Part shown: positions 2,106 through 20,543 of the stretch, piece after piece
Layout of the letters: every line of letters begins with the position of its first letter
Numbering within the stretch: position 1 is the stretch's first letter
Source of the DNA: Dehalococcoidia bacterium
Lineage (GTDB): Bacteria; Chloroflexota; Dehalococcoidia; SpSt-223
DNA length: 64,000 nt
Assembly (NCBI GenBank): GCA_026003895.1
Contig: BPIC01000003.1
Span: forward strand, 504,999 to 568,998
Direction of reading: 5' to 3'
The notes under the pieces: generated by a model
What the model saw: only the letters and a program-made list of their open reading frames with translations
The model's database searches: none
What the model was told of the DNA's origin: nothing
Translations under genes and position numbers: made by a program

Positions 2106-2156
2106 CATGAGGGGCCGGGCACGGTGAGGATGAGGCACCGTGCTACACTGGCACCC

Positions 2157-3219: not shown

Positions 3220-3241
3220 TCGGCAAATACCATAGTGCCGA
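3219..3241. other. Junction between comM and inserted DNA, with short inverted repeat
   Basis: Homology to comM ends at about 3219. Immediately beyond lies TCGGCA (3220-3225), a 10-bp spacer and TGCCGA (3236-3241), a perfect 6-bp inverted repeat that overlaps the GTG start of the next gene at 3235. It may be the terminal sequence of the inserted element, a recombination site, or an operator of the XRE regulator. No matching second copy was noticed. Confidence 0.5.
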
Positions 3242-3969: not shown

Positions 3970-4330
3970 GCAGTCCGAACGGACAGGGCGATCGAGCGGC
4001 GCTGGCGGCCGCGCTCCCCGTGCCGAGGGTTGGCGGACGCGGGCCGAGCAGGCCCACGGGGGCCTGGTTCCGGATCCATCTCTGACGCTGACGGCCTCGG
4101 AGATCGGCGCCTACACCTTCTGCCCGCAGGCCTGGTACCTCCAGCGGTGCCGCGTGCCGGTCACCGCCATGGCCGAGGAACGCCGTCGGTCCGGCAGCGC
4201 CACGCACCGGGAGATCGGGCGTCAGACCGACCTCGTCCGGGCGGCGGGCGCATTGCGGACTATCCTGCTGTTCGCCATCGGCGTCCTGCTGGTCCTGCTG
4301 GTGGCGCTCGTGCTCAGGGGGCTCGGATGA
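3962..4330 (+). CDS. Cas4-like nuclease, N-terminal half, C-terminally membrane-anchored
   Basis: 122 residues. Residues 43-62 (ASEIGAYTFCPQAWYLQR) match the N-terminal signature of Cas4/AddB-type Fe-S exonucleases, with C54 as the first cluster cysteine. H82 in THREIG matches the motif I histidine. Residues of about 97-118 are a hydrophobic helix followed by a short Arg-Gly tail, so the protein should be membrane-bound. The D, ExK and remaining cysteines expected in Cas4 are absent here but present in the next gene, whose ATG overlaps this stop codon (ATGA). Together the two would make one complete Cas4 fold. No cas1, cas2 or array is nearby. Confidence 0.75.
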   Translation: MAEQSERTGRSSGAGGRAPRAEGWRTRAEQAHGGLVPDPSLTLTASEIGAYTFCPQAWYLQRCRVPVTAMAEERRRSGSATHREIGRQTDLVRAAGALRTILLFAIGVLLVLLVALVLRGLG

Positions 4331-4884
4331 GTGCCGAGCTACTCCTGCTCTGCCTGGTACTCGCCATGGCGGCCTACGTCCTGCTGGCCCGTTGGACACG
4401 GCACCGCCGCAGTGCGCTCGGCATAACCGACGGCGTGGTCGTCTCGGCCGACGATTCGCTCATCCGCGCGCCTACCCTACGTTCGGAGCGGCTGGGGCTG
4501 GTCGGCCGGTGCGACCATCTGCTGCGGGTGGGCGGGGCCTACGTGCCGGTGGAGCAGAAGCCGAGCGCGCGGCGCCTCCAGCAATCGCACATCCTCCAGG
4601 TCGGGGCGCTGTGTCTGTTGGTCCAGGAGGTCTACGGCGTCCGTCCGCCCTACGGCGTCGTGGTGCTGGCCGGCGGATCGCGGGAACGCGTGGTGTTCAC
4701 CGAGGAGCTGGAGCGGGGGGTGGTGCGCACGATGGCCGAGATGCGCCGGATACTGGAGAATGGTGAGGCACCCGGTCCCCGGTGGGTGCCCGCCAAGTGC
4801 CGCGCCTGCGGCTACCATCCCGTCTGTTGGGAGGACGAGGACGCCGGCGCGGCCGGCGACCGGTTCGCGCAGCGGGTGGGCTGA
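4327..4884 (+). CDS. Cas4-like nuclease, C-terminal half, N-terminally membrane-anchored
   Basis: 185 residues, starting at an ATG that overlaps the previous stop. Residues 3-22 form an N-terminal membrane helix. The PD-(D/E)XK core follows: D63 in LVGRCDHLL, E76-x-K78 in VPVEQKP and a Q-x-x-x-Y-like helix (QVGALCLLVQEVYG, residues 91-104). Three cysteines C158, C161 and C167 (CRACGYHPVC) complete the Cas4 Fe-S set whose first Cys is in the upstream protein. Predicted activity is a membrane-tethered Fe-S DNA exonuclease formed by two polypeptides. The split and double anchoring are unusual for Cas4. Confidence 0.8.
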   Translation: MSAELLLLCLVLAMAAYVLLARWTRHRRSALGITDGVVVSADDSLIRAPTLRSERLGLVGRCDHLLRVGGAYVPVEQKPSARRLQQSHILQVGALCLLVQEVYGVRPPYGVVVLAGGSRERVVFTEELERGVVRTMAEMRRILENGEAPGPRWVPAKCRACGYHPVCWEDEDAGAAGDRFAQRVG

Positions 4885-6279: not shown

Positions 6280-6519
6280 TCACCGCCCTGTCTGCCGAGG
6301 AGGCGATAGACCGACCAGCATGGGACAATAGAGAGTAGGCGAGGTGGCGGACGCAGCATTCGATCGACGCTGCGTCGGCAGGCGCTCATCCAGGTCACTC
6401 GGACCTCGCTCCCTCGTAGACGGAGCCTCCGAAGCCCGCTGTGGCAAGGAGGCTCGAATTGGGCATCAGGGTCCGCCGGGCGGTACGCGGGCTTGAGGGC
6501 GGACAAGGAGAAGCACACG

Positions 6520-9036
6520 GTGCCAATCGACTTTGGCAAGATAGCCGCGCCGAAGGCGGCGGCGCGGCCCACAGACCCGATCGCCCTGTTCCAATCTCTG
6601 CGTGTCACCGATCCCGCGATCAATGATCTCTGGCTCGCGCAGGGCGACGCGCTGCGCGAGTGGGATAGCCGTCGGGCGGTGCCTGACATCGCCATCGTCC
6701 TGAATACCGGCGCAGGCAAGACGCTGGTCGGCCTGCTCGCGGCGCAGTCGCTCGTCAACGAGACCAACGGCCATGTCGTTTACGCCTGTAGCTCGATCCA
6801 GCTCGTCCAGCAGACGGCGAGCAAGGCGCGCGGCTACGGCCTCAGCGTCACCACGTACGTCGGCGGGAACTTCAGCAACGACCTCTACCGGCAGGCCTTG
6901 GCCCCGTGCATCACCACATACCACGCGCTCTTCAACGGCCGCTCACGCTTCTTCGACGAGGATCTCAGCGCCGTGGTGTTCGACGACGCGCACACGGCCG
7001 GGCATCTCCTGCGAGACCAGTTCACGCTGCGCATCGGGCGGGAGGCTCTTCCTCAGACCTTCAGCCAGCTCGTCCAACTCTTCCGGCCGTACTTCACCCG
7101 TATCGGCAAGGACACGGGCTACATCGAGACCCAGGATCGCCTTGATGCCGCCACGTCCTGGTTCGTCCCGCCGTTCGCAGTGAAGCCGCAGCTCGCTGAA
7201 CTCCAACGGATTCTGCGCGAGGCTTCGCTCGGCGCGGTGACCGAGACGACCTTCGCGTGGGAGTACCTGCGGGACCACCTCGATTCGTGCGCCGTGTTCG
7301 TCTCGGGTGCGGAGGTATCGTTTACACCGCCCGTCGTGCCCGTGCGCACGCTGCCGTACTTCGGTGACGGCGTCCGGCGGCTCTATCTCTCGGCCACGCT
7401 CGCGGCGAAGGACGCCTTCTTGCGGGCGTTTGGCCGCGAGCCCGATCCGGTCATTACCCCGTCCACGACGGCGGGCGAGTGCGAGCGTCTGGTCCTCATT
7501 CCCGCTCTGCATCGGAGTGGCGGCCGGGCGGCAAGCGACAGCGAGGTGGCAAAGCGCATCGTCAGGGACCATAAGTGCCTGGTGCTGGTGCCGACGCGTC
7601 GTCGGGCGCAGGTGTGGGATAGCATCGCGACCAAGTACGACGACAGCGTTGCCGAGCAGGTTGAGGAGTTCAAGCGGGCCGGCTCCCCAGCGTGCTTGGT
7701 CTTGACCGCGCGCTACGACGGGGTCGACCTGCCGGGCGACACCTGCCGCGTCCTGGTGATCGACGATCTGCCGACAGGCCTCAACCCGCTCGAGCGCTAT
7801 TTGTGGGAGCGTCTGGGGCTGCTCAAACTCCTGCGATCGACGATCGCCTCGCGCGTGGTGCAAAGTTTCGGACGCATCTCCCGCGGGATGAGCGATCACG
7901 GCGTCGTGGTGCTGACGGGCCGCAAGCTGGTCGAGTGGATCCTCTCCCCGAAGAACCAAGCCTTGCTGCCGGAATTCCTGCAGCGCCAGCTCCAGCTCGG
8001 CATCCACCTCTCACGCCAGCTGGACACGGTGGACGAGTTGGTGGACGCGGCCCACCAATGCCTGTCCCGCGACGAGGGCTGGACCGCCTTCTACCAGCGC
8101 ACCATGGAAGACCTGGGGGCGACAACCCAGCCCGTGGAGGATGCCGAGGAGATCCTCCGGATTACCCGAGCCGAGCTCGACTTCGGCCACGCGTTGTGGG
8201 CACGCGAGTACGCGGACGCGGCGAAGGCGCTTGAGCGCGACCTGGAGCAGACCTTCACCGCAAGCCGACCGACCGGCGCGTGGCACGCCCTGTGGCTCGG
8301 CTACTGTTACGACCTGCTGGGAGATGCCACCCGGGCCCGCGAGCTGTACGAGCGCGCTCACCGGGCGGAGAGGAACATCCCGCCGTTCGATGTCCAAGGC
8401 GATGTCCAGACGCAGGCCGGGCACCCGGCTCAGGTGCTCGCCGTTGCCGCCTCGCTCCAGCGCGGCACCCAGGCACACCTGGAGCTGCCGAGGCACTTCG
8501 ACACCGAGCTCGCGGCGCTGGACGGGACGGGGACGGTGCCCCAGGTGGAGGCCGCCCTCGAGGCGCTGGGACAGTACCTCGGCCTCGAGGCCCGCCGGCC
8601 CGATAACGAGTCCGGCACGGGGCCGGATGTCCTCTGGACCACCCCAGGCGGTCCCGCACTGAGCATGGAGGCCAAGACGGGGAAGGGAGAGGGCGCTGTC
8701 TACAAGAAGGAGGATCTGGGCCAGCTCCGGGACCATCATCAGTGGGTCCGCGGCCAGCTGGGGGCGGTCGAGGTCCACTCGGCGTTCGTCGGACCGGCGG
8801 CGCGTGCGTCGCCAGATGCCAATCCCGACCCGGAGATGGTGGTGATCGAGCTCGAGGCGTTCCGTGGCGTCCGCGATCGCCTGCGAGCGGCGCTCGTCGA
8901 CATCTGTGCCGCGGCCGTGCCCGCAACGGCTCCGTCGGTAGTCCACGATGTCTTCGCGGAGCGCGGGTTGCTCTGGCCGGGGATCTACGATGAGCTTCCC
9001 AAGCACGTCCTGCGGGAGATTCCGCCGGGGCGGTGA
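6520..9036 (+). CDS. SF2 DEAD/DEAH-like helicase fused to PD-(D/E)XK nuclease
   Basis: 838 residues from the GTG at 6520, chosen because AAGGAG lies 8 bp upstream; a TTG at 6493 is possible. Helicase motifs: Walker A NTGAGKT (62-68), motif II DDAH (155-158), motif III SAT (291-293) and motif VI QSFGRISRG (448-456). Residues of about 520-680 are helical and TPR-like. The C-terminus carries a restriction-endonuclease-like core: D703 in GPDVLW and E717-x-K719 in MEAKTGK. It should be an ATP-driven DNA translocase that cuts. It is convergent with the Argonaute operon (93 bp between stops) and probably belongs to the same defence island, but I cannot name a known system. Confidence 0.8.
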   Translation: MPIDFGKIAAPKAAARPTDPIALFQSLRVTDPAINDLWLAQGDALREWDSRRAVPDIAIVLNTGAGKTLVGLLAAQSLVNETNGHVVYACSSIQLVQQTASKARGYGLSVTTYVGGNFSNDLYRQALAPCITTYHALFNGRSRFFDEDLSAVVFDDAHTAGHLLRDQFTLRIGREALPQTFSQLVQLFRPYFTRIGKDTGYIETQDRLDAATSWFVPPFAVKPQLAELQRILREASLGAVTETTFAWEYLRDHLDSCAVFVSGAEVSFTPPVVPVRTLPYFGDGVRRLYLSATLAAKDAFLRAFGREPDPVITPSTTAGECERLVLIPALHRSGGRAASDSEVAKRIVRDHKCLVLVPTRRRAQVWDSIATKYDDSVAEQVEEFKRAGSPACLVLTARYDGVDLPGDTCRVLVIDDLPTGLNPLERYLWERLGLLKLLRSTIASRVVQSFGRISRGMSDHGVVVLTGRKLVEWILSPKNQALLPEFLQRQLQLGIHLSRQLDTVDELVDAAHQCLSRDEGWTAFYQRTMEDLGATTQPVEDAEEILRITRAELDFGHALWAREYADAAKALERDLEQTFTASRPTGAWHALWLGYCYDLLGDATRARELYERAHRAERNIPPFDVQGDVQTQAGHPAQVLAVAASLQRGTQAHLELPRHFDTELAALDGTGTVPQVEAALEALGQYLGLEARRPDNESGTGPDVLWTTPGGPALSMEAKTGKGEGAVYKKEDLGQLRDHHQWVRGQLGAVEVHSAFVGPAARASPDANPDPEMVVIELEAFRGVRDRLRAALVDICAAAVPATAPSVVHDVFAERGLLWPGIYDELPKHVLREIPPGR

Positions 9037-9129
9037 CTACCGCCCAGGAGGCGCCGACGCCGGTAGGCCTCGGGCACGGCCATCCCTCAGGCCGTCGCGC
9101 TGCCGTACCGAGGCGTGCGGTGAACCGCA

Positions 9130-10596
9130 TCACTCCGCTGCCGCCATCGGCCGACGTGTTGGTGAGGGTGCCGCGGCGGCGTCGGGATCGGTCGGCGCCT
9201 TCTTGGTCCGGCCGCGCGATCGCCGACCCGGTGTCCCTTCACCATCGCCCGGCTGCGCCGGCAATTGGCTCGGTCGCGAGACGACAACGACATCCTCGAT
9301 CTGGGGCAGCTTCCGCAGGCCCATCTCGGTCAGGCCGTGCTCCTGGACGGACGCGGACTCGTCGTAGATGAACACCAAGATGCGGTCGTAGCGATCGCGC
9401 GTCTCCAGGAGGTAGGCGACCGAGTCCTCCATGATCTCCTTCTCGACCGCCTTGAAGTCGCCCGCCTTGCGGGCATACTTGGCTTCGATCAGTAAGCGCA
9501 GCGACGGGATGCCGAAGTCGGCGCGATAGGTGCTGTGGCCGACCTTGGGCAGGGTCTCCTCGTCGACCACGTCATCGAAGACTGAGCGCAGGATGAGCCA
9601 GAGGATGTCTTGGACCTCACGCTCGGCGGTGATCTCCCAGCGGATGGGGTGCTTGACCGCAGCGGGGTCGTCCCAGCGCCACCGGCGCATGGCGGCCTCG
9701 AAGCGCCGCAGCACGGCTGCGACGTGGCTGCGCGACAGCACGAGCTCGTCCGCGCTCCGCACGAGGGACGCGTGGACGGCGCTCCAGACGAGGGCAGCAC
9801 GGGCGGCCCCGAGCGCGGAGGGGTCCGCGACGGCCGCCGCGTCCAGCACGCGCGCCTGAAGCCTCGACAGGTCGACGCGCGGGTCGACGAGCAGCAGCGC
9901 CCCGCGCCGGCTCCCCCACTCCAGCAGCGCACGCTCCGCCACGTCGCGGTATTGGCGGACGTCGTCGATGGTGTCGGCGTCGCCGGTAAGGGTCCACCGG
10001 ATGTACCCGTAGAGCAGGGCGTGGTACGGCGTCGCGGCGCGACACCGGGGGTCGTCGAGCACGCTCACCAGCCAGGCGCGGGTCTCGTCACCCCCCTTGC
10101 CGAGGGCCACGGTGGCCAGGGCGATGCCGAGGAACAGCAGCGGGTCGAAGGCGAAGGAGACGCGGTCTTCGGGGAAGGGATCCCGCAGCCGCAGCTTCGC
10201 CAATCCGTCGGCGAGCCGCGTGACGACCGGAGGGGGCGCTGTGGCGCGGAAGTGCCGGAGCCCGTAGCCCAGCGCGGCGAGGGTCGGCATGTGCCCGAGA
10301 CGATCGGCGTTCGCGGCGAGCCAGGCCGGCGTGGCCGGGTTGACATCCCAGGCGAGTGGGAAGTCGGGCTCATCGTGCAGCACGTGGTAGGCGAACAGCC
10401 CCTCGACGTTGCCCGGCGCGTTCGCGCCCGCCACGCGGTCAACCAGGGCGCGCTGTTGCGCCCCGAGAGGGGCGACGATCGCGGACGGCCCGCGGGATTC
10501 GGGGGATCGGCCGCCGCGGGCTTTCGCGTCGCACCCTCCGGCCGCACCCAGGCCACCTCCAGCGCCGTCATCAGGCGCCGCGTCTTTCGCGCTCAT
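9130..10596 (-). CDS. PD-(D/E)XK nuclease paired with the Argonaute
   Basis: 488 residues. The ATG at 10596 overlaps the stop of the Argonaute gene (ATGA), so the two are translationally coupled; a longer in-frame extension to 10740 would overlap it by 148 bp and is less likely. Residues 50-330 are helical and unrecognised. The C-terminal domain has D360 (YRADFGIP) and E371-x-K373 (LLIEAKYA), followed by a helix with KEIMEDSVAYL and a strand ILVFIYDES, a complete PD-(D/E)XK core. The last 40 residues are a low-complexity basic tail. The likely role is an effector nuclease triggered by guide-loaded Argonaute. It is the last gene of the operon. Confidence 0.8.
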   Translation of the reverse strand: MSAKDAAPDDGAGGGLGAAGGCDAKARGGRSPESRGPSAIVAPLGAQQRALVDRVAGANAPGNVEGLFAYHVLHDEPDFPLAWDVNPATPAWLAANADRLGHMPTLAALGYGLRHFRATAPPPVVTRLADGLAKLRLRDPFPEDRVSFAFDPLLFLGIALATVALGKGGDETRAWLVSVLDDPRCRAATPYHALLYGYIRWTLTGDADTIDDVRQYRDVAERALLEWGSRRGALLLVDPRVDLSRLQARVLDAAAVADPSALGAARAALVWSAVHASLVRSADELVLSRSHVAAVLRRFEAAMRRWRWDDPAAVKHPIRWEITAEREVQDILWLILRSVFDDVVDEETLPKVGHSTYRADFGIPSLRLLIEAKYARKAGDFKAVEKEIMEDSVAYLLETRDRYDRILVFIYDESASVQEHGLTEMGLRKLPQIEDVVVVSRPSQLPAQPGDGEGTPGRRSRGRTKKAPTDPDAAAAPSPTRRPMAAAE

Positions 10597-12974
10597 AGGA
10601 ACCACCGGCTCGTGCGCAGCATCGTGGCGAGGGCATCGGGGTTCCAATTCCGGACATGCCGGAGCCGTCCCAAGAGCGAGGCGATCAGGTCCGAGTAGAG
10701 GATGGTCACCGGCCTGTTCGTTGGGAACAGACTGCGCCACGAGAGCGACGTGAACCGGTACAGCTGGCCTGCCAGGTACTCCAAGTCCTGGAACGTCGAC
10801 TCGCGGTGCAGCTTCAGCAAGAGTGGGCGCGGTGCGCCCTGGAGCGGGGTCATCAGGCCCCGCGGGCCGATCGTGGTCAGGAGGATCTCCGACCGACCGA
10901 GCGGGACGGCGTAGCCGCGGTCCGGCACGTACTCGCCCTTCCGCTGTCCCCGCAGCTGCGGGTCGGCCACCTGCCAGTCCTGCACGCCCTCGCTATTTCG
11001 GTCGAAGAGCATCCACTCGTGCTGCTCGCTCACGTGCAGGAACGCGAATTCGACGCGATAGTCATCGACCATTCCCTCTACAAGCCGCTTGACGGCCTGC
11101 GCCTCGATGTCCTTTAGGGGCTTGAATACGTGGAACACCAGCCGGATGGCGTCGCCGGTCTGCCAGGCGTTCCGCGCGCGGACCCAGTCCACCGTAGTGC
11201 GGAGTGTGGCGAGTAGCTCGTCCGGGTACTCGTCGTAGGGCACCTCGCGCGACGTGTTGTGGAGCAGGTAGTTCCCGTCAGCCGTGAAGACGGTAGTAAT
11301 CCCCACGACGCGCTCGGCCCCGGTCAGGCGTCCCGCGCCGAGCGAGGCACTGCCGATCCCGATCACCAACTCCTGCGCCAGGCTCTGGGCCGCGTTGATG
11401 ACGAACGGGATGCCGCCGAGCTTGGCGTAGGAGGCCAGGGCGATGCCGCTGAGGGTGTAGGGCACGCCGCGCTCGAGGTGGGGCGGCACCCGGATCGTCT
11501 CGATGGTGACCTCCTGCACCGGCACGCCTTGCGACATGAAGGCGGACTTCGCCACCAGGTACGGGTCGTCGTCCCCGCGGAGCTCCTTGTGCTCCTCCTT
11601 GATGATCACGAAGGCGAGGTGGGGCTTCGGGGTTAACCTCAGCGCGTCCAGGCAAGCCTGGCGGTAGCTGGCCGCCTCGCGCGGCCCGGGCTCGAACGCC
11701 TCGATGTGGAACGTGCAGTCGCTCAGGCGGTACTTGCGGATGAAGCCCTGCGCGAAGGTCTTGGCGTTGGGCACGCCCTGCTTGAGCTTGCGCAGGAAGA
11801 CCTCGGCATCGCCCTGAAAAGCCTTCGGGGTCACCACGGCGATGTGCGGCCGCTTGGGCGTGAAGACCTCCGCGTCGAACGGCCCGAAGTCCTCCATCCC
11901 CTGGTCGTGCGACCGGGCGGTCTTGGTGCCGGCCGGGTCGAAGACGAACGTCGGCGAGCGGAAGCGGCGGTACGTCCCCCCATCCATCCCCTGCTTCAGC
12001 GGGGACGGGGCGGCGACGGTGCATGAGAGGCCGTCCGCCAGCGCGAGCGCCCCCCGGCCCTTCAGCCAGTCGGCGATCTCGGCCACCCGGCGGTCGCGGC
12101 CCTTCGCGCCCACCACGCCGAAAACCTCCAGGTCGAGCTGGCGCAAGATGCCCTCAGGGTTCGGGACACCACTCAGCCGGACGGCGGCGGCGAAGTTCTC
12201 CACGCGTGCCTCCAGCCAGGCCCGATCGGCCGGCACTTCCGACAGCCGGGGCGCATCGCCGAGGATGAGCCGATCTCCGTTGACCGCGTCCACGCGCCCT
12301 TCGGTGCGCCGGCGGGTCGCCGGATCGCGTCGCGCATCGCGGGCCAGTTCATCCTCCTCGGCGAGCACGTAGCGGCCGCGCACGTCCATACCCCGAGCGA
12401 GCAGCGCGGCGACGGTGCAATCGATCTCGCGGCGTGTCTTGAAGCCGACCAGGATGCCGAACTGTGGTCCTCCCCGGCCGTGGAGCACACGGGCGTCGAG
12501 CGTGTACTGCGGGTAGACGTGCAGCCAGGCCACCGCCGGTGCGCCGTCACCTGCGCTTCGCGCCAGGAGGTCGCGTCGTGGCTGGCGCGCGACGAAGGAC
12601 GGCGGGTTGAAGTCCAGGAGCCGATATCCCCAGGCCACGAGCGATCGGATGAGGGCCTCCTGGACGAGGCGACGCACCAGACCCGCGGACTGGCGCACCC
12701 CGAAGCTCGCCGGCGCGCCGATCGGTGGTGCATCGGGCGTCAGCGGGACGCACGCGATCTCGTCGCCCTGGCGGCGGAAGACGTGCGTCGCCGCGTGCTC
12801 GGCGCGGAGGAGCGCCAACTGGTCGGACGACTCGAACGGGAGCAGGCCCCCGGCGAACTCCTCGGCCGACAGGGTGAGGGGCAGGAAATTGAGGACAAGG
12901 TCGGGCTCCGCCGGTGGGCGGTAGTTCGTCGGCGGACGACGGCGGAAGTCGCGATTCACGGCCCCTCTCGCCAT
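10593..12974 (-). CDS. Long prokaryotic Argonaute, catalytically inactive (long-B type)
   Basis: 793 residues. The C-terminal half is a clear MID-PIWI module: MID pocket residues Y472, K476 and Q487 (PYLVAKSAF...GVPVQ) and K518 (SYAKLGG), consistent with binding a guide 5' phosphate; then PIWI strands LVIGIGSASLG, VVGITTVFTADG, RLVFHVFKPLKD and the terminal signature SWRSLFPTNRPVTILY ending in WFL. The first catalytic Asp of the DEDX tetrad is Gly541 and HxFKxxxD replaces the usual Asp region, so it should bind but not slice. Inactive long-B Argonautes are typically encoded beside effector proteins, as here. Its start overlaps the upstream gene by 19 bp. Confidence 0.88.
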   Translation of the reverse strand: MARGAVNRDFRRRPPTNYRPPAEPDLVLNFLPLTLSAEEFAGGLLPFESSDQLALLRAEHAATHVFRRQGDEIACVPLTPDAPPIGAPASFGVRQSAGLVRRLVQEALIRSLVAWGYRLLDFNPPSFVARQPRRDLLARSAGDGAPAVAWLHVYPQYTLDARVLHGRGGPQFGILVGFKTRREIDCTVAALLARGMDVRGRYVLAEEDELARDARRDPATRRRTEGRVDAVNGDRLILGDAPRLSEVPADRAWLEARVENFAAAVRLSGVPNPEGILRQLDLEVFGVVGAKGRDRRVAEIADWLKGRGALALADGLSCTVAAPSPLKQGMDGGTYRRFRSPTFVFDPAGTKTARSHDQGMEDFGPFDAEVFTPKRPHIAVVTPKAFQGDAEVFLRKLKQGVPNAKTFAQGFIRKYRLSDCTFHIEAFEPGPREAASYRQACLDALRLTPKPHLAFVIIKEEHKELRGDDDPYLVAKSAFMSQGVPVQEVTIETIRVPPHLERGVPYTLSGIALASYAKLGGIPFVINAAQSLAQELVIGIGSASLGAGRLTGAERVVGITTVFTADGNYLLHNTSREVPYDEYPDELLATLRTTVDWVRARNAWQTGDAIRLVFHVFKPLKDIEAQAVKRLVEGMVDDYRVEFAFLHVSEQHEWMLFDRNSEGVQDWQVADPQLRGQRKGEYVPDRGYAVPLGRSEILLTTIGPRGLMTPLQGAPRPLLLKLHRESTFQDLEYLAGQLYRFTSLSWRSLFPTNRPVTILYSDLIASLLGRLRHVRNWNPDALATMLRTSRWFL

Positions 12975-13900
12975 GACGGCGGCCCGATCGAACGCCGGCC
13001 CTGTTCCACGTCCAGCGAGCGCAGGAACAGCTCCACCACCGCCGCCGCGTCCTGCCGGTGGCGGGCGTCCAGGTCGCGGCGTCCGGGGTCGGCCAGGAAC
13101 CGCGCGTAACTGATCGGGCCGTCCTTCCGCGCGCCGGGTGTCCGCTCGTCCGAGGCGAAGCGGGTGCGCAGGATCTCCAGTGCCCGGGGCAGGAGCAGCT
13201 CCTCGGGCCAGCGCGCGAGGTGCTCGGCGAACCGGGCCGCCACGTCCTCCGGCCCGCGGCCGAAGTGCATCAGGCAGTAGATCAGGTCGTAGGCGTCCTT
13301 CTCCTCGAACCTGTCCTCATAGGCGAGCGCCTTGAGGACGACGAATGGTACGACGTTGGCGACACGGACCGTCTCGGTGGCGACCCCGCGCTCATCAAGC
13401 AGCGTGGCGGTGAGCTCCACCTCGACGTGGTCCGCGACGACCAGGTGCGCGCCGGGGATCTTCAGCGCCGACAGCCGCCGCTCGCCCGGCAGCTCCGCGA
13501 CCTGCCCGCCTTCACCCAGGTCAGCGTCGCAAAGCAGATCCACGACGACCGTGACCCCGTCCCCCACGGGCTTGCGCCACGAGAAGTGCTGCACCCGTCC
13601 CTCCTCGTTCGTCCCGCGGACGAAGCCCAACGCCCGGAGGTTCTGCTCCAGCCGGCGGTAGGCCTCGACGCTGGCCAACACCTGGAGGTCCAGCACCAAG
13701 TCGACGTCCGTCGTGCCCGCATGCGGCGGCGGCCCCGGCTGGCCCTCGGGCGGCCGAGCGATGAGGTAGCGGGGCACCAGGCCGCCGGCCAGGTAGACGC
13801 CGGTTTTCCAGGGGCCGAGCCCCCGCAGCAGCGTCACCAGCGTCCGCTCGCACAGCTCGGCGTGGAGCGCGGTGTAGCCCCCTTGGTGCTTCGGCTTCAC
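12956..13900 (-). CDS. Nucleotidyltransferase of the AbiEii/AbiGii-like (MNT) type
   Basis: 314 residues, ATG at 13900. The polymerase-beta-type nucleotidyltransferase signature is present: GG at 39-40 (VYLAGGLVPRYL) and D65-x-D67 (TTDVDLVLDL), followed by a helical region with LKALAYEDRFEEKDAYDL, typical of AbiEii-like proteins. Such enzymes transfer NMPs to tRNA or protein targets and act as toxins paired with a winged-helix AbiEi antitoxin. The upstream gene fits that partner. Its 3' end overlaps the Argonaute start by 19 bp, so toxin-type NTase, Argonaute and nuclease are made from one message. Confidence 0.75.
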   Translation of the reverse strand: MKPKHQGGYTALHAELCERTLVTLLRGLGPWKTGVYLAGGLVPRYLIARPPEGQPGPPPHAGTTDVDLVLDLQVLASVEAYRRLEQNLRALGFVRGTNEEGRVQHFSWRKPVGDGVTVVVDLLCDADLGEGGQVAELPGERRLSALKIPGAHLVVADHVEVELTATLLDERGVATETVRVANVVPFVVLKALAYEDRFEEKDAYDLIYCLMHFGRGPEDVAARFAEHLARWPEELLLPRALEILRTRFASDERTPGARKDGPISYARFLADPGRRDLDARHRQDAAAVVELFLRSLDVEQGRRSIGPPSWREGP

Positions 13901-13928
13901 GGCTCATCCTCACCCATCGGTCGCCCCG

Positions 13929-14948
13929 TCAGTAGCCGAGCCGCTCGGCGCGGAGGTGGCGGGCCTGATCTTTGCCACGCTGCGGCCACGCCCACAGGTC
14001 CACATAGAGTTGGACGTCGCTCGCCACCCAGAACCCTTGCACCTGTCGCCGGAAGAGGAGCGGCGAGCGCTCGCGCGTCATGAGGAACGTCACCGCCTCG
14101 CCCTCCTCGACGGGCAGCAGATCGCTCGCCCGCGCCATCCCCTCCAGCCGGCCGGCGGCGCCGGCAGGCACGAGCACCCAGGCCCGCTCGGCGTCCGTCC
14201 CGTAGGGGGCGACGAGCCGCGCTCCGGAGCCGAGCGTCAAGGCGTGCTCAATGCCGGCGCCGGCGAGGGCGTCCGTGGCGGCGTGCAGGAGCTCGACGGG
14301 CTCGCGCACCCAGCGGTGGAAGCGCCGGGCCTCGTACTCGGCCAGGGAATGCGCGGCCGCCCAGGCGTCCAGCAGGGCACCGGGCTCGCGGAGCACGCGC
14401 ACAGCGCGTGGCCCCTTGCCCGCCTTGTCCATCCAGAGCTGCGCCTCGAGGAACGTACAGACCTGATGCACCGTCGAGAGCGAGACCTGCGCGCACTGGG
14501 CCAGCTCGCTGACGTGCCAGGTGCGGCCGGGCTCCAGCAGCAGCGCGTGGAGGACCTGGGCGGTGCTGCCCCGGTAGACGTTGCGCAGGACGCGCGGTCG
14601 CCCCGCGGGGACCGGTCGGTCGACCCAGAAGAAGGCCCACGGCAGGTCGATGTAGATGCTGCCCCCGGCGTCCCAGTAGGCCAACTTGTGCCGCCGCAGC
14701 AGCTCACGGCTGGCCTCGGAGATGGCCGGGGCCGCCAGGAGCGGCACGTCGGCGACGGGCTGCTCGAGGCGGCGCAGGCCGTCGAGCTGCCAAATCGCCT
14801 GCTGCACGTCGCGGGGGTAGCCGCTCGCCTTGGCCTCGACCAAGAACCGGACAGGTCGACCCTTCACCTCGCCGAGGACGGCGAGATCCAAGGCGCGGCC
14901 GTCGACGCGTGGTTCCGGGTCAACGGAGCGGATCTCGACATCGGGCAA
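13929..14948 (-). CDS. AbiEi-type protein: nuclease-like N-terminus plus winged helix
   Basis: 339 residues if the TTG at 14948 is used. No ATG or GTG lies between it and the in-frame stop upstream; a GGAG sits 8 bp before an in-frame ATC (14975 region), a rare possible start. The N-terminus resembles a PD-(D/E)XK fold (LDLAVLGEV...FLVEAKASG). Residues of about 120-190 form a winged helix (WHVSELAQCAQVSLSTVHQV). The C-terminal half is unrecognised. This layout matches AbiEi-like antitoxin/regulators next to AbiEii nucleotidyltransferases. First gene of the four-gene operon, 28 bp before the NTase, downstream of an 18-bp palindrome it may bind. Confidence 0.65.
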   Translation of the reverse strand: MPDVEIRSVDPEPRVDGRALDLAVLGEVKGRPVRFLVEAKASGYPRDVQQAIWQLDGLRRLEQPVADVPLLAAPAISEASRELLRRHKLAYWDAGGSIYIDLPWAFFWVDRPVPAGRPRVLRNVYRGSTAQVLHALLLEPGRTWHVSELAQCAQVSLSTVHQVCTFLEAQLWMDKAGKGPRAVRVLREPGALLDAWAAAHSLAEYEARRFHRWVREPVELLHAATDALAGAGIEHALTLGSGARLVAPYGTDAERAWVLVPAGAAGRLEGMARASDLLPVEEGEAVTFLMTRERSPLLFRRQVQGFWVASDVQLYVDLWAWPQRGKDQARHLRAERLGY

Positions 14949-15017
14949 CTGGGCGAGGGCTTCGGCGACGGCGCGCGACAGGTCGATGGCGTCTGCTCCT
15001 ACGGCTAGGACGAGCTA

Positions 15018-15035
15018 TTTCGCTGTACAGCGAAA
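15018..15035. promoter_or_regulatory. Perfect 18-bp palindrome, probable operator of the Argonaute operon
   Basis: TTTCGCTGTACAGCGAAA is perfectly self-complementary and unusually AT-rich at the ends for this DNA. It lies about 70 bp upstream of the first operon gene. AbiEi proteins autorepress by binding inverted repeats at their promoter, so this is the expected target of the winged-helix protein. Confidence 0.7.
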
Positions 15036-15170
15036 ATACCACATCGCCCGAAAGAAGGCAAGGCTCCGCCGCTCATCGCTCGGGCCGCGTGGCCAAGGAA
15101 CTGAGGTCAAGACGCGGAACGTGATGCCGCTGCACTGCATCACCATCCGGGGGTTGGCTTCGTAGCCCAC

Positions 15171-15611
15171 GTGCTTGTCCAGCGTGGCTACCCCGAAGCG
15201 GTCGGTCTGGGCCTGCCGGAGCCGGAGTTCTGGGAGGACGGTTTCAGCTTCGTGATCACCTTCCGCAGCATCGCCCCGCGTGAGGGGGTTGCGCCGACGC
15301 CTGACGCCTTCCGGGCGCTGTTGGAACAGAGGGAGATCACCGATCGGCTGGACCGCGGGCTACTGCACGCACGGGAGCACGGGACCATCGCTCGTCGCGA
15401 GTACGTGGCGGTGACCGGCGTGTCAGAGCGGATGGCGGCGAACGACCTCGCCGATCTGGTGCGCAAGGGCCTGCTTGAGGCCACGGGCGGGCGGGGCCGG
15501 CGGGACTGCGTACCGCTTGCGCCACGAGGCAGGCTGAGAATCGTGCTGCCCATTGCACGATACTTGCACGATTCCTGCCCGTTCGCGGCGCGTCGGTCCC
15601 TCCAGCGATAG
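15171..15611 (+). pseudogene. C-terminal fragment of an AlbA_2/HATPase-type winged-helix regulator
   Basis: The frame from 15171 resembles only the last part of divergent-AAA (AlbA_2) ATP-binding transcription factors: the end of the ATPase domain (GLPEPEFWEDGFSFVITFR) and the winged helix (REYVAVTGVSERMAANDLADL). The N-terminal two thirds is missing and no recognisable sequence precedes it, so it is most likely a remnant, possibly marking the right border of the accessory block. Confidence 0.55.
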
Positions 15612-15816: not shown

Positions 15817-17216
15817 CCTTGGTCGGACTGCCCTACACCCACGGCCGCGACCTCCGCCTCGCGCCGCTGGTCCAATGCCTTCGCCCAGGCCTGAGCGGCC
15901 GCGTGCACCGGGTCCCATGGGCTGCTGACGGGTGGGGTGTAACTCAGGTCGAGGTCGTTGAGCTCCTCGACACGCATGCCGTGGAAGAGGGCGGTGGCGT
16001 AGATGTCGATCCGCTTGGCCACCTCGGAGCGATACGGCCCCACCATCTGCACCCCAAGCAGGCGTCCGCTCTGCCGGTCTCCGGTGACGCGGATCAGCAA
16101 CTCCTCGGCGCCCGGGTAGTACCGCTTGTGATCCCAGATGGTGACCTGGGTGGCAACGGGGTCGAAGCCAGCCTCCGACGCCTCATGGTCGCGAAGCCCC
16201 GTGCGCGCCGCCACCAGTTCGAACACCTTCACCACCTGCGTGCCTAGGCTCCCCGCGAACTCGCGCTCTCCCCCCGCCGCATTCTCGCCGGCCACTCGCC
16301 CCTGCTTGTGCGCGGTCGTGCCAAGCGGCAGGTAGGCATACCGCCCCAGCAGGCGGTGCCAGGTCTCGACGCAGTCGCCGGCGGCATAGACGCCGGGGAG
16401 ATTGGTCTCCATCCGGCCGTTTACTCGGATCGCACCTTTGATCCCGGTCGATACGCCCGCCGCCGCGGCCAACTCGCTGTTGGGCCGGACGCCGACGGCG
16501 ACCAGCACGACGTCCCCGCTCCGCTCAAAGCCAGCGGGGCCCGCGACCACCAGGCGCGAGCCCTCCGCCCGGATGGCCTGCACGGGCATCCCGTTGATCA
16601 CTTCCACCTCGTGGCGGCCGAGCTCCACTTCCAACACTCGGCCGAGGCTTGGGGCCACGGTCGGCAGCACCGAAGGGGAGCGTCCGACGAGCGTGACGCG
16701 CAGGCCGCGCAGCGTCAAGGCATCGGCCATCTCCAGGCCGATGTAGCCGGAGCCGACAATCACCACCGACTCGGGGCGCTCCCTCAGCAGGTGCTCGTGC
16801 ACCAGGAAGCTGTCTTCCATGGTGTGGAGCGGGAACACCCCTGGCAGATCCAGCCCGGGGATGTCGGGCCACACCGGCACGGCCCCCGTGCCGATCACCA
16901 GCCGGTCATAGGGGAGCTGCCGCGCCTGGCCTCGCCGGTCCACTACCGTCACGGTTTGCCCGGCCGGGTCGATCTGGGAGGCGACGTGCTCCAGCAGGAG
17001 CCCAACGCCCTCGCGCTCGATCTCGGCGACGGTGCGATGGGCCAACAGCTGCGGGTCGGGCACCTCGCCGCTCACGTAGAACGGCAGCCCGCAGATGCTG
17101 TAGTTGGGGAAGGCGTCGGCCACGACCACGGTCACCTCCAGGTCCGGCGCCACCTCCCGCGCCCGGAGCGCCGCGCCGGTCCCCGCGTCGCTACCGCCGA
17201 TGATCACCAGACGCAC
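15813..17216 (-). CDS. FAD/NAD(P)-dependent disulfide oxidoreductase (CoA-disulfide-reductase type)
   Basis: 467 residues from the GTG at 17216. Two Rossmann motifs: LVIIGGSDAG at the N-terminus (FAD) and VVIVGSGYIGLEMADAL near residue 160 (NAD(P)H). The redox-active single Cys of the CoA-disulfide reductase/NADH oxidase group is in FPNYSICGLPFYVSGE (about residue 43). The third FAD motif VYAAGDCVE and the C-terminal dimerisation domain are present. It overlaps the aquaporin gene by 26 bp, so it is the last gene of the arsenic operon. Members of this group occur in ars operons, where a role in thiol or arsenical redox is plausible but unproven here. Confidence 0.8.
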   Translation of the reverse strand: MRLVIIGGSDAGTGAALRAREVAPDLEVTVVVADAFPNYSICGLPFYVSGEVPDPQLLAHRTVAEIEREGVGLLLEHVASQIDPAGQTVTVVDRRGQARQLPYDRLVIGTGAVPVWPDIPGLDLPGVFPLHTMEDSFLVHEHLLRERPESVVIVGSGYIGLEMADALTLRGLRVTLVGRSPSVLPTVAPSLGRVLEVELGRHEVEVINGMPVQAIRAEGSRLVVAGPAGFERSGDVVLVAVGVRPNSELAAAAGVSTGIKGAIRVNGRMETNLPGVYAAGDCVETWHRLLGRYAYLPLGTTAHKQGRVAGENAAGGEREFAGSLGTQVVKVFELVAARTGLRDHEASEAGFDPVATQVTIWDHKRYYPGAEELLIRVTGDRQSGRLLGVQMVGPYRSEVAKRIDIYATALFHGMRVEELNDLDLSYTPPVSSPWDPVHAAAQAWAKALDQRREAEVAAVGVGQSDQG

Positions 17217-18006
17217 ATTCGGCCTCCGATCCCCTGTCACCTGAGACACCGTGAGGGACGACCGCCTCCCTGGCCACGGCGGCGATGCCCGGATAGAGCA
17301 GGCGGACGGTCCCGACACCAAGCACGCCGCCGAGCGCCTGGAAGAGCACAAAGGCTGGCGCCGAGCTGGGACTGATGCCGGCGAACGTATCCGAGAGCGT
17401 GCGGGCGATCGTGACGGCCGGGTTGGCGAAGCTCGTCGAGGAGGTGAAGAAGTAGGCACCGGCGATGTAGGCGCCGACCGCGAACGGGGCCGCCGTGCTG
17501 CGGCCCGAGCGGACGACCCCGAACACCACCAGGATGAGGCCGAAGGTGGCGACCACTTCCCCCAACCACAGCCCCGCGCCTGTCCGCACCGTCGCTGCCA
17601 CCTGCACGGGCGGCAGGGCGAACATCAGGTTGGCGAGTACCGCGCCCGCGAGGGCGCCGACGACCTGCGCGATCGCATACACGACGGCTGTCGTGGCCCT
17701 GAGGCCGCCAAAGACCCGATCCGCCAGGGTCACGACCGGATTGAGATGGGCGCCGGAGACCGGCCCTACGGCAAGGATGATGGCGACCAGCGCGGCCGCC
17801 GTCGCTGCGGCGTTCTCCAGGAGCTGGAGTCCGACATCACCAGGGCTGAGCCGCTGGGCCGCGATGCCGGAGCCAATCACGGCCACCAGGAGCAGCGCCG
17901 TCCCGACGAATTCGGCCACCGCCTGGCGCAGGAGCGTCGCGGTGCTCAACCGCGAGCGTGCTGGGTGACCGAGAACCGGTCCATTCTCTCTTGCCGGCGC
18001 CCTCAT
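17191..18006 (-). CDS. MIP-family aquaglyceroporin, probable arsenite channel (AqpS-like)
   Basis: 271 residues from the ATG at 18006 (GGGAG upstream). Six hydrophobic helices with two pore loops: GAHLNPVVTL (first NPA box, here NPV) and SFANPAVTIART (second NPA). An uncharged second box and a following Arg are normal for MIP channels. In Sinorhizobium, AqpS in the ars operon lets arsenite made by ArsC leave the cell by downhill flow. That role is inferred here from the operon context and from the absence of an arsenite pump gene. Confidence 0.82.
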   Translation of the reverse strand: MRAPARENGPVLGHPARSRLSTATLLRQAVAEFVGTALLLVAVIGSGIAAQRLSPGDVGLQLLENAAATAAALVAIILAVGPVSGAHLNPVVTLADRVFGGLRATTAVVYAIAQVVGALAGAVLANLMFALPPVQVAATVRTGAGLWLGEVVATFGLILVVFGVVRSGRSTAAPFAVGAYIAGAYFFTSSTSFANPAVTIARTLSDTFAGISPSSAPAFVLFQALGGVLGVGTVRLLYPGIAAVAREAVVPHGVSGDRGSEAECASGDHRR

Positions 18007-18053
18007 GATCGCTCCCTCGTTTTCTGCCCTGTCGGCCAGCGGCATCTCGGAGG

Positions 18054-18536
18054 CTACCTCCGCTCAGTGGCGCGCAGGATGCAGACGAGGCACGCGGCCC
18101 GATGCAGCACGTACTCCGACACGCTGCCGAGCAGCGCCCGCTCCAGCGCCGATTTGCTGGCCGCGGCCATTACGATGGCGTCGGCCCCTCGCTCCTTCGC
18201 CAGACGCACGATCGCCTCACCGGGCCGGCCGCGCGCGACCAGCGTCGTGGCGGGAACGCCGTGTCGCCTCGCCAGGTCCGCCACCGCGCCAGTCGCCCGC
18301 TCACCTTCCTCGGCCAGGACGTCCGCGCCGCCGGTCAGGTAGAGGCCGGTCTGGCCGACGAGCTTCTCATCGACGACGAAGACCGCCAGGAGCGCCGCAC
18401 CGGCATGCTTCGCCAGGGCTACCGCATGCAGACTGGCCGGCCAGGATGCGGAGGACCCATCGGTCGGGTTGAGGACCAGGGAATACTTCGGCAGTACGCC
18501 CGGATCGGAGTCCGGCGTCGGCTGTCCGCCGGTCAT
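18054..18536 (-). CDS. Universal stress protein, UspA family
   Basis: 160 residues, ATG at 18536. A single Usp domain: beta strand YSLVLNPTDGS, helix-rich centre, and the nucleotide-binding signature near the C-terminus (ARGRPGEAIVRLAKERGADAIVM, then a serine loop SVSEYVLHRA). The canonical G-2x-G-9x-G(S/T) motif is only partly conserved (AAASKSALERALLGS). It lies between arsC and the aquaporin gene in the same orientation and is probably cotranscribed. Confidence 0.85.
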   Translation of the reverse strand: MTGGQPTPDSDPGVLPKYSLVLNPTDGSSASWPASLHAVALAKHAGAALLAVFVVDEKLVGQTGLYLTGGADVLAEEGERATGAVADLARRHGVPATTLVARGRPGEAIVRLAKERGADAIVMAAASKSALERALLGSVSEYVLHRAACLVCILRATERR

Positions 18537-18577
18537 TTCGCTTCACCTCCCTGGCGGCCGGTCATCCAGGACGGCGC

Positions 18578-19219
18578 CTATCGCGCGCTCAAGACGCCCA
18601 GTTCGGCCAGGAGCCGTTCGACGTGCGCGCGGATCGCGTCGCGGATCTCGCGCACCTTCTCGAGCGGCTGACCGGCCGGATCCTCGATCGACCAGTCCTC
18701 GTACTTCTTGAATGGATACAACCGGCAAGCATCGCCGCAGCCCATCGTGACCACCACGTCGGCCGCCCGCACCACCTCGTCGGCGAGCGGCTTGGGGAAC
18801 TCCTGCGAAAGGTCTACGCCCAACTCGCGCATCACTTCGACCGCGGCCGGGTCGATCTGCTTGGCCGGCGCCGACCCGGCCGAGTGGGCCTCGATCGCCC
18901 CGCCGCTCAGGTGCTGGGCCAGGGCGGCGGCTATCTGCGAGCGGGCGGCGTTCCGCACGCAGACGAACAGGATGTGCGGCCGGTCCACTGGCCGCAGGCC
19001 CTCCACCCCAGCCAGCGCCAGCAGCCGCTCGCGGGTGAAGCGGTACGCGAAGATCGGCAGGTATCGCTTGACGCGAGCGCCGGTTAGCCAGCCCACCGAC
19101 TCGCGGGCGCAGCGGTCGATGGTCTCCCGGCTGAACATGCCGCGGAACTCATCGGCAAGCCGCTCGACCTCCCGCCTCAGCAGGTCGTCGGTCTCAGGAT
19201 CGAGGGAGGCCTCCCCCAT
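18578..19219 (-). CDS. arsC: Arsenate reductase, LMW-PTPase fold with N-terminal three-helix domain
   Basis: 213 residues from the ATG at 19219; a GTG at 19276 would add 19 residues. Residues of about 5-65 form the helical N-terminal domain found in actinobacterial-type arsenate reductases (LLRREVERLADEFRGMFSRETI). The phosphatase-like domain follows, with P-loop CVRNAARS (C-x5-R), and an aspartate loop EDPAG. It reduces arsenate to arsenite, probably with mycothiol- or thioredoxin-type electrons. It is the third ArsC-type domain in the operon. Confidence 0.85.
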   Translation of the reverse strand: MGEASLDPETDDLLRREVERLADEFRGMFSRETIDRCARESVGWLTGARVKRYLPIFAYRFTRERLLALAGVEGLRPVDRPHILFVCVRNAARSQIAAALAQHLSGGAIEAHSAGSAPAKQIDPAAVEVMRELGVDLSQEFPKPLADEVVRAADVVVTMGCGDACRLYPFKKYEDWSIEDPAGQPLEKVREIRDAIRAHVERLLAELGVLSAR

Positions 19220-19247
19220 CTGAGCCTTGTCGTTCCCACCCAATGCC

Positions 19248-19694
19248 TTACCTCTGGTGGTCTTGTCGCGAGCCACTCGCGATCAGTTCGGTCTCGGTGC
19301 GCTCGCGGACGGCGTCACGCACCTGCCGATAGACGGCAAGCTGCTGATCTTCGCTGCCGGTTGCCTTCGACGGATCCGGGAACGACCAGTGCAGCCGCTC
19401 GCCGCCGCCGGGGAAGAGTGGACAGGCCTCGGCGGCCTGGTCGCACACGGTGATGACCCAATCGAACGGCTGGCCGAGGTACTCCTCGATGGTCTTGGAG
19501 CGCTGGCCCGAGATGTCGATCCCGACCTCCGCCATCGCGCGGATGGCCAGCGGGCGCACCTGAGTGGCCTCGGTGCCCGCGCTGTGGGCCTCGAAGCGAT
19601 CGCCGGCGAGGTGACGCAGCCAGCCCTCGGCCATCTGCGACCGCGCGGAGTTGTGGGTGCACACGAACAGAACGCGCTGTTTCTTGTTGGTCAT
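19248..19694 (-). CDS. arsC: Arsenate reductase ArsC, LMW-PTPase type
   Basis: 148 residues, ATG at 19694 overlapping the stop of the ArsR-ArsC gene (ATGA). P-loop CTHNSARS near the N-terminus, resolving-cysteine region [17 protein letters not shown] (two Cys separated as in thioredoxin-coupled ArsC) and the aspartate loop FPDPSKA. Length and layout fit S. aureus pI258-type ArsC. Cotranscribed with the fusion gene upstream and the second ArsC downstream. Confidence 0.9.
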
Positions 19695-20524
19695 AGCTCC
19701 TCCCGGCCATCACGTGCTGCGGCGGGCGAGGCAATCCGGCGCAGGCGCTGCCCCGTAGCGGGGTGCGGCAGGCTCAGCAGGTAGCGGACGCGCGTCAGGA
19801 GCTCCCGGCGGACCTGCTCGAAGACACGCCGCTGCTCCTCTTCGTCCTGGACCGCCACCGGGTCGGGCAGGCTCCAGTGAATCCGCGTGGGATCACCCGG
19901 GAAGACCGGACAGGTCTCGCGGACCCGGTCGCAGACGGTGATCACGTAGTCGAAGTGCTGTCCGATAAACGCGTCCATGGCCTTTGACGCGTGGCGGCTC
20001 GGGTCCAGGCCCCACTCCTCCATCAGCTCGGCAGTGACGGGGTGGACGCCGGTCGGCTGCGAGCCGGCGCTGTAGACCTCGACCTGGTCGGCGCCGAGTT
20101 GCCGCAGGATAGCCTCGGCGAGCTGCGAGCGTGCGCTGTTGTGCGTGCACAGGAAGAGCACCCGCAGCGGCCGGCCGGGTTGGGTCGGGGCCGAAGACGC
20201 CTCCGGCTCGCACGCGATGCCGGGATGCAGCGTGCTGCCAGCCTGCGCGTACAGCGCGTGCAGCCGTTCCAGGTCGATGCTGTAATAGACATCGCGCGCA
20301 TCCCAACCGCCCCGGCGGTCTCGAAGGAGCCCCAGGGAGCGCAGCTGCTTGAGGTGGTAGGACACGGCGTTCTGGGGCGCTTGGAGACGCTCCACGATTT
20401 CCCCTGCTCGCAGGTCGGTCAGCGCCAGCAGCCGAACGATCGCGAGTCGGGTCTCGTCGGCGAGCGCCCTGAAGAACGCTGCGACATCGGACGTGGGGAA
20501 CGCCACCGCATGGATTGCCACCAT
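19691..20524 (-). CDS. ArsR-ArsC fusion: arsenic-responsive repressor joined to arsenate reductase
   Basis: 277 residues from the ATG at 20524, which has GGGG 7 bp upstream; a GTG at 20542 lacks a ribosome site. Residues of about 10-95 are an ArsR-type winged helix ([17 protein letters not shown], then [17 protein letters not shown]). Residues of about 125-255 are a full ArsC domain with P-loop CTHNSARS, Cys pair [17 protein letters not shown] and loop LPDPVA. It probably represses its own operon and reduces arsenate. The metal-site cysteines of classical ArsR (CVC) are not visible in the recognition helix region, so sensing may differ. Confidence 0.88.
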
Positions 20525-20543
20525 GCCACTACCCCGGATCACT

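What the first reader, a model, noticed from the sequence alone, without database searches (positions are those of the whole stretch)
10593..14948. Four-gene operon joining an AbiE-like toxin pair to an inactive long Argonaute and a nuclease
An AbiEi-type winged-helix protein, AbiEii-like nucleotidyltransferase, long-B-type Argonaute and PD-(D/E)XK nuclease (9130-10596) run head to tail on the minus strand with a 28-bp gap, a 19-bp overlap and an ATGA overlap. Long-B Argonautes with a single effector are known; adding an AbiE-like module in the same translation-coupled unit is not something I recognise. A guide-loaded Argonaute might license both a nuclease and an NTase toxin.
Basis: partly seen in the sequence, partly recalled or inferred. 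Interest (0 to 1): 0.93.

Follow-up and report, generated by a model that had tools for sequence, protein, structure and literature searches.

The report
Toxin-antitoxin pair leads Argonaute operon
In this bacterium the genes for an Argonaute, a protein predicted to recognise invading DNA with a short guide, and for its likely DNA-shredding partner sit directly behind what looks like a toxin-antitoxin gene pair, whose predicted DNA-binding member would probably keep the whole set switched off from one conserved control site.

Summary
In detail: AbiEi-like, nucleotidyltransferase (NTase), long-B Argonaute and PD-(D/E)XK nuclease genes lie head to tail on the minus strand (9130-14987). The last two form a BPAN-type system (long-B pAgo + bAgaN). 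The first two are an AbiE-like type IV toxin-antitoxin pair. They are separate modules: 0 of 7 distant Ago relatives with readable flanks have the pair, and the pair occurs without Ago on many plasmids and chromosomes. Yet the junction is not a one-off: a second genome, G439, same phylum and apparently another class, carries an intact pair joined at the same place to a decayed Argonaute 5' end (87% DNA identity over 2.3 kb). A palindrome, TTNRCTGNNCAGYNAA, lies before the AbiEi-like gene in 19 of 21 loci; in the window it overlaps the likely promoter and is unique in the held genome. Related pairs front other defence genes (HsdR, Mrr-type, Druantia-E-like helicase, Ppl-like ATPase; less directly a SIR2-like gene). 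Best reading: an autorepressing toxin-antitoxin cassette has captured a BPAN effector unit. That Argonaute licenses the NTase toxin is not supported. A new variant of known kinds, with a testable idea: AbiE-like pairs as portable lead cassettes for defence operons.

The parts
15018..15035 (.). perfect 18-bp palindrome TTTCGCTGTACAGCGAAA, predicted operator of the AbiEi-like repressor
   Evidence: only match with up to 2 mismatches in the held 3.98-Mb genome (80.5% complete); same core upstream of 19 of 21 AbiEi-like genes at 11-12 of 12 positions
15033..15061 (-). likely promoter TTGCCT-17-TATTTT (8 of 12 consensus), its -10 overlapped by the palindrome
   Evidence: read from sequence; the consensus scan, which needs 9 of 12, found no promoter in 8900-15300, so this is inferred
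13929..14987 (-). AbiEi-like protein: PD-(D/E)XK-like domain (about 1-124), winged helix (130-213), NTase-like fold in which I see no DxD motif (228-352); start probably ATC 14987 or CTG 14981, listed ORF starts at TTG 14948
12956..13900 (-). AbiEii/MenT-like nucleotidyltransferase, predicted toxin, motif residues kept
10593..12974 (-). long-B (class II) Argonaute; likely start GTG 12959, giving a GTGA overlap with the NTase stop
   Evidence: PDLC02379 E 3.4e-247; EcAgo E 1.8e-107; P0121 96% identical, starts at the GTG
9130..10596 (-). bAgaN-type PD-(D/E)XK nuclease (Aga_Helical-REase), ATGA overlap with the Argonaute
   Evidence: PDLC02407 E 1.3e-146; DpnII-MboI E 2.9e-38

Best explanation
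An AbiE-like pair, likely a toxin and its antitoxin, lies directly in front of a long-B Argonaute-nuclease (BPAN-type) pair in one close-packed gene array behind a single conserved palindrome, so the AbiEi-like protein is predicted to repress the whole array, while the Argonaute, once guided to invader DNA, would likely switch on the nuclease to destroy the cell's DNA. Shown by sequence: gene order, overlaps, family of each protein, the palindrome and its conservation, the shared pair-Argonaute junction in a second genome, and purifying selection on all four genes. Inferred: the AbiEi-like winged helix binds the palindrome; the four genes share one transcript; translation of Argonaute is coupled to that of the NTase; the NTase is a growth-arresting toxin held in check by the AbiEi-like protein and makes the island hard to lose; Argonaute and nuclease work as in EcBPAN (guide RNA, target DNA, collateral DNA degradation). 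In this model the NTase does not need the Argonaute; the pair supplies control (repression of a dangerous effector) and addiction.
For: Pair and Ago/nuclease are separable modules: 0 of 7 Ago relatives with fetched flanks have the pair; 7 of 20 Ago homologues at 60% identity or more share a contig length with a listed bAgaN homologue, 0 of 20 with a listed NTase homologue; NTase relatives in 60 plasmid records, Ago relatives in 10, no record in both lists. Junction recurs: G439 contig L065 matches window 12734-15044 at 87% DNA identity, including 218 bp of Ago (80%, E 6e-47), after which Ago is lost while the pair stays open. Operator: 19 of 21 loci, 10 of the 12 loci not used to write the motif; 28 of 28 perfect matches in 785,850 held bases lie within 260 bp before an AbiEi-like match (several held loci overlap). 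Constraint: dN/dS 0.36, 0.21 (AbiEi, NTase; L065), 0.22, 0.33 (Ago, bAgaN; L003). Related pairs directly before other defence genes in four loci, and before a small antitoxin and a SIR2-like gene in a fifth. AbiE precedent: AbiEi represses its operon by binding inverted repeats over the promoter (PMC3985639, passages).
Against: Promoter match is weak (8 of 12; one search found none). No expression data. The second junction is a decayed copy, so only one intact four-gene array is known. Locus L003 (Ago 84%, in G439) is cut at the contig edge before the junction, so the nearest intact Ago relative is silent. Most pairs read have no close defence cargo. Two of 21 loci (L037, L039) lack the motif, and L039 is one of the pairs with a defence cargo. 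AbiEi-like carries an N-terminal nuclease-like domain that the passages of PMC3985639 do not describe for AbiEi, so repression/antitoxin roles are by analogy. The parts may have been joined here only recently.
Confidence: 0.6

Rival explanations
1. Chance neighbours: a mobile AbiE-like pair landed in front of a BPAN unit; read-through makes them one transcript, but each works alone and the pair has no role in controlling Argonaute.
For: In 11 of 15 annotated plasmid loci no annotated same-strand gene starts within 100 nt of the NTase, and G439 lost the Argonaute next to it but kept the pair.
Against: GTGA/19-nt overlap with no room for an Argonaute promoter outside the NTase gene; the same junction in two genomes 87% identical over 2.3 kb; two other pairs also overlap a defence gene by 4 bp (L012, L039).
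Confidence: 0.25
2. One reading: one integrated four-part system in which guide-loaded Argonaute licenses both the nuclease and the NTase toxin.
For: Gene order, overlaps and a second copy of the pair-Argonaute junction.
Against: Ago-nuclease relatives occur without the pair, EcBPAN acts with Ago and bAgaN alone (PMC10620215), and the pair persists without the adjoining Ago (L065).
Confidence: 0.08
3. Back-up suicide: the NTase pair is a fail-safe triggered when the Argonaute/nuclease response shuts down expression or destroys DNA, so that the antitoxin is lost and growth stops.
For: Close packing in one array and kept toxin motifs; the idea itself rests on general knowledge of toxin-antitoxin pairs beside defence genes.
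Against: No direct evidence; type IV antitoxins need not be labile.
Confidence: 0.07

Closest known systems
BPAN systems (long-B pAgo + bAgaN; EcBPAN, PMC10620215)
   Same: Long-B Argonaute followed by an overlapping PD-(D/E)XK nuclease, same order and family
   Different: An AbiE-like pair and its operator stand in front; the main text of PMC10620215 has no 'AbiE', 'toxin' or 'nucleotidyltransferase' at a word start; its Fig. 1 legend mentions a putative HTH regulator among the genes shown
AbiE type IV toxin-antitoxin (AbiEi/AbiEii, PMC3985639)
   Same: Regulator gene first, NTase second; winged helix; inverted repeats before the pair (two sites 54-55 bp apart in four Pseudomonadota loci; one in the window)
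   Different: Extra N-terminal PD-(D/E)XK-like domain; possibly the COG4861-COG4849 branch named in that paper (not tested); followed by defence effectors in one array
BrxR/CapW WYL-domain repressors of defence islands (PMC9122601, passages)
   Same: A repressor gene at the head of a defence operon acting on inverted repeats at the promoter
   Different: WYL protein without a toxin; here the repressor is half of a toxin-antitoxin pair
CreTA guarding CRISPR-Cas (recalled, not looked up)
   Same: A toxin-antitoxin element coupled to a defence system
   Different: RNA-based pair regulated by Cascade; no Argonaute

Membership tests
BPAN (long-B pAgo-nuclease) | Long-B Argonaute | tested here: met
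   PDLC02379 E 3.4e-247; EcAgo E 1.8e-107 over 26-793
BPAN (long-B pAgo-nuclease) | Loss of the DEDX catalytic tetrad | tested here: inconclusive
   First PIWI motif reads GIGS, aligned to GIGS of EcAgo and GMGL of 6d95_A; no active Argonaute was aligned, other positions not tested
BPAN (long-B pAgo-nuclease) | bAgaN gene directly downstream in the operon, with D...(D/E)xK motif | tested here: met
   PDLC02407 E 1.3e-146, ATGA overlap; ADFG...LIEAK read in the sequence
BPAN (long-B pAgo-nuclease) | Guide-RNA/target-DNA activation of collateral DNA degradation | not testable with these tools
   needs biochemistry
AbiE type IV toxin-antitoxin | Regulator gene preceding an NTase gene | tested here: met
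AbiE type IV toxin-antitoxin | AbiEi family with winged helix | tested here: inconclusive
   winged helix in model; AbiEi_2 in 8 of 15 aligned sequences but not in the window protein; extra N-terminal nuclease-like domain
AbiE type IV toxin-antitoxin | AbiEii NTase with conserved motifs | tested here: met
AbiE type IV toxin-antitoxin | Inverted-repeat operator over the promoter | tested here: met
   palindrome at 15018-15035, conserved; binding not shown and promoter only inferred
AbiE type IV toxin-antitoxin | Toxin neutralised without protein contact | not testable with these tools
   needs experiment

The most novel reading that the evidence does not exclude
AbiE-like pairs are portable lead cassettes: one autorepressor, one toxin and one conserved palindrome that clip onto the front of unrelated defence effectors (Argonaute-nuclease, type I HsdR, Mrr-type, Druantia-E-like helicase, Ppl-like ATPase, SIR2-like), placing each under the same antitoxin-controlled switch and tying its retention to a toxin.
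Probability: 0.4. Interest if true: 0.78.

Novelty: new variant of a known kind. Interest (0 to 1): 0.6.

Why it matters
How potentially lethal Argonaute suicide systems are kept silent until needed is, to my knowledge, largely open. Here sequence offers a concrete hypothesis: a toxin-antitoxin repressor with a defined 16-bp operator at the head of the operon. Related pairs before four other defence genes, and near a fifth, suggest that AbiE-like pairs may be general switches of defence operons, and the operator motif gives a direct way to find further members and to test control in a laboratory strain.

Tried and rejected
Rejected: Argonaute as licence for the NTase (pair occurs and persists without it). 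Rejected: ordinary BPAN locus with an unrelated neighbour gene (overlapping genes, shared junction in G439).

Led nowhere: genome-contig scan with the Ago gave only 2 loci; viral-contig scans gave one NTase relative and no Ago relative; pAgo_II in 77 genomes of the phylum of G440 rang nowhere, controls included, so it shows nothing; profile searches of the PDB by sequence gave no NTase-toxin relative and, for AbiEi-like, DNA-binding regulators and weak NucS/EndoMS matches; Foldseek gave no NTase match at E 0.001 or better, so the MenT resemblance rests on the second-look aligner. The contig-length join is weak evidence: lists are capped at 120 (NTase: 120 of 975; bAgaN: 120 of 433), partners 90% or more identical hide in one cluster (the closest Ago, P0121, is uninformative for that reason), and three of the seven Ago-bAgaN contigs (4343, 4306, 4692) look too short to hold the pair as well. 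One shared length, 5451, between an NTase and a bAgaN comes from different sources and is probably coincidence. Paper searches for Argonaute with AbiE, AbiEii or nucleotidyltransferase and for AbiEii with type I restriction in one operon (no paper held all terms) listed no paper whose title or abstract start describes this arrangement; only listings were seen for these. The motif was written from the window and 8 other loci, so only the other 12 loci are an independent check, and some of these are close relatives of each other. The ORF caller missed NTases overlapped by longer spurious ORFs (L011, L012), so absence of the pair at Ago loci was rechecked by tblastn.

Full report
Observation. Four genes run head to tail on the minus strand: AbiEi-like 13929-14948, NTase 12956-13900, Argonaute 10593-12974, nuclease 9130-10596. 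The first gap is 28 nt; NTase and Argonaute overlap by 19 nt from ATG 12974 or by 4 nt (GTGA) from GTG 12959; Argonaute and nuclease overlap by ATGA. The closest Argonaute relative (P0121, 96%) begins at the GTG position. The AbiEi-like frame has no ATG/GTG/TTG before 14948 back to the preceding stop, but homologues align further up, and an ATC at 14987, 8 nt after AGGAG, with a CTG at 14981, is conserved in L065; the true start is therefore probably not a standard one.

Two modules. NTase relatives occur in 60 plasmid records and Ago relatives in 10, with no record in both lists. Seven Ago loci with readable flanks (G008/L048 and plasmid loci L005-L010) have no AbiEi-like or NTase match by tblastn at E 0.001 with ten queries (L012 as positive control); the bAgaN family follows in 6 of these 7. 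They are distant: about 30-35% identity for the five full-length genes; L009 is split by an insertion element and L010 keeps only a C-terminal piece. Four more distant Argonautes in the phylum sample (L030-L033, 1.5-kb flanks) also show no pair member. In the sample of 400 genomes of the phylum, 15 have the NTase at E 1e-10 and 4 have pAgo_II at E 1e-20, the window's genome included in both; only the window's genome and G144 have both, and in G144 they lie on different contigs, the NTase match having stops inside. The contig-length comparison (7 of 20 close Agos share a length with a bAgaN, 0 of 20 with an NTase) points the same way, with the limits given under Tried and rejected.

The junction recurs. 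The closest Argonaute locus outside the window's genome, L003 (Ago 84%, bAgaN 79% identical), is cut by its contig end inside Ago. Its genome, G439, carries on another contig (L065) an AbiEi-like gene (85.5%) and an NTase gene (89%) followed, at the same junction, by DNA 80% identical to the first 218 or so bases of the Argonaute gene (E 6e-47); small gaps interrupt the frame and the similarity then ends. Overall, window 12734-15044 matches L065 at 87% DNA identity. G439 belongs to a class with 110 held genomes, whereas 393 were drawn from a larger set for the window's class; both lie in the same phylum (the sample returns the places), so the joined unit has probably moved between classes. The pair there is open and under constraint (dN/dS 0.36 and 0.21), and so are Ago and bAgaN between window and L003 (0.22, 0.33). 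So the pair outlived the Argonaute beside it.

The operator. A perfect 18-bp palindrome at 15018-15035 overlaps a likely -10 box (TTGCCT-17-TATTTT; 8 of 12, below the threshold of the scan). It is the only site with up to two mismatches in the held 3.98-Mb genome (80.5% complete). Palindromes of the same form stand before AbiEi-like genes elsewhere (not every locus had a significant one in that first, motif-free scan). The motif TTNRCTGNNCAGYNAA scores 12 of 12 in 14 and 11 of 12 in 5 of 21 loci, and 8 of 12 in 2 (L037, L039). Nine loci served to write the motif; of the other 12, 10 score 11 or more. All 28 perfect matches in the 785,850 bases held (101 sources, several overlapping) lie within 260 bp before an AbiEi-like match. 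L011, L012, L013 and L061 have two sites 54-55 bp apart; the window has one. In the AbiE system of PMC3985639 AbiEi binds two inverted repeats over the promoter and represses it (passages).

Other cargoes. Of 36 loci holding an NTase relative (L081 and L037 end at or soon after the NTase), six have a defence-type gene or its remnant starting within 100 nt downstream on the same strand: the window (Argonaute), L065 (Argonaute remnant), L039 (HsdR, -4 nt), L012 (Mrr-type endonuclease, -4 nt; QatABC further on), L013 (Druantia-E-like helicase, +89) and L057 (Ppl-like ATPase, +71). A seventh, L034, has a weak Phd-like antitoxin ORF at +30, then a 337-aa protein without a family match and a SIR2-like protein. 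L046 has a gene there that does not look defensive (judged from its first 40 residues), and many have only short doubtful ORFs or none. Of the 16 plasmid records fetched of 60, 15 are annotated at the locus, and in 11 of these 15 no annotated same-strand gene starts within 100 nt. In L039 the pair sits between a 115-residue HsdR-like N-terminal piece and a full HsdR gene, but L039 lacks the motif.

Mechanism. Most likely the AbiEi-like protein represses the operon at the palindrome; the NTase is a growth-arresting toxin whose antitoxin is the same protein; Argonaute and nuclease are the invader-triggered arm. Control of a lethal effector and addiction are the benefits. The repression, antitoxin and shared-transcript steps are inferred. 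The nearest concept in print of which I saw passages is BrxR, a WYL repressor at the head of defence islands (PMC9122601). 'AbiE' does not occur in the main text of the BPAN paper.

Setting. A comM-like gene (named from its sequence, no family search made) is broken at about 3263; its C-terminal part matches contig C4. The stretches 3.3-20 kb and 32-52 kb have only weak, scattered matches in two same-genus genomes (20-32 and 52-64 kb were not searched), and a PDC-S28 candidate-defence helicase gene lies next to the array. This looks like an accessory island, though a wrong join in the assembly is not excluded. The phylum is probably Chloroflexota: contig G219:C183 has the length (22318) of the contig of P0023, named Chloroflexi, and G219 is listed as same phylum.

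Noticed in passing
window 6493-9036 (+): 847-aa helicase with a C-terminal domain, PADLOC candidate defence family PDC-S28 (E 3.3e-270), convergent with the Argonaute array.
   Followed up: partly
window 2124-3263; G000:C4:56707-57144: comM-like gene broken at about 3263; its C-terminal 147 residues match another contig. 3.3-20 kb and 32-52 kb have almost no match in two same-genus genomes: accessory island in comM or a wrong assembly join.
   Followed up: partly
window 14979-15000; L065 near 4987: AbiEi-like gene seems to start at ATC or CTG after a good Shine-Dalgarno; the ATCGACCTG stretch is conserved in G439. A weak start could keep the repressor scarce.
   Followed up: partly
L039 5943-11518: AbiE-like pair lies between a 115-residue HsdR-like N-terminal piece and a full HsdR gene, as if inserted with a duplication.
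   Followed up: partly
L011 3817/3871; L012 3818/3872; L013 2808/2862; L061 4790/4845: Four Pseudomonadota pairs carry two perfect operator copies 54-55 bp apart, the window only one.
   Followed up: partly
window 4030-4884 (+): Cas4-like (PF01930, E 2.3e-9) nuclease domain; no search for CRISPR genes was made.
   Followed up: no
window 17191-20542 (-): Row of ArsC-like phosphatase, ArsR-like regulator and aquaporin-like genes: probable arsenic resistance cluster, judged from sequence only.
   Followed up: no
window 15171-15611 (+): 146-aa divergent ORF with a weak AbiEi_4/SoFic-like winged-helix match, E 0.0027 and 0.037, perhaps a gene fragment.
   Followed up: no
L034 8489-10855: After the pair in G219: a 337-aa protein with no family match and a SIR2-like 441-aa protein, perhaps an undescribed defence pair.
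   Followed up: no
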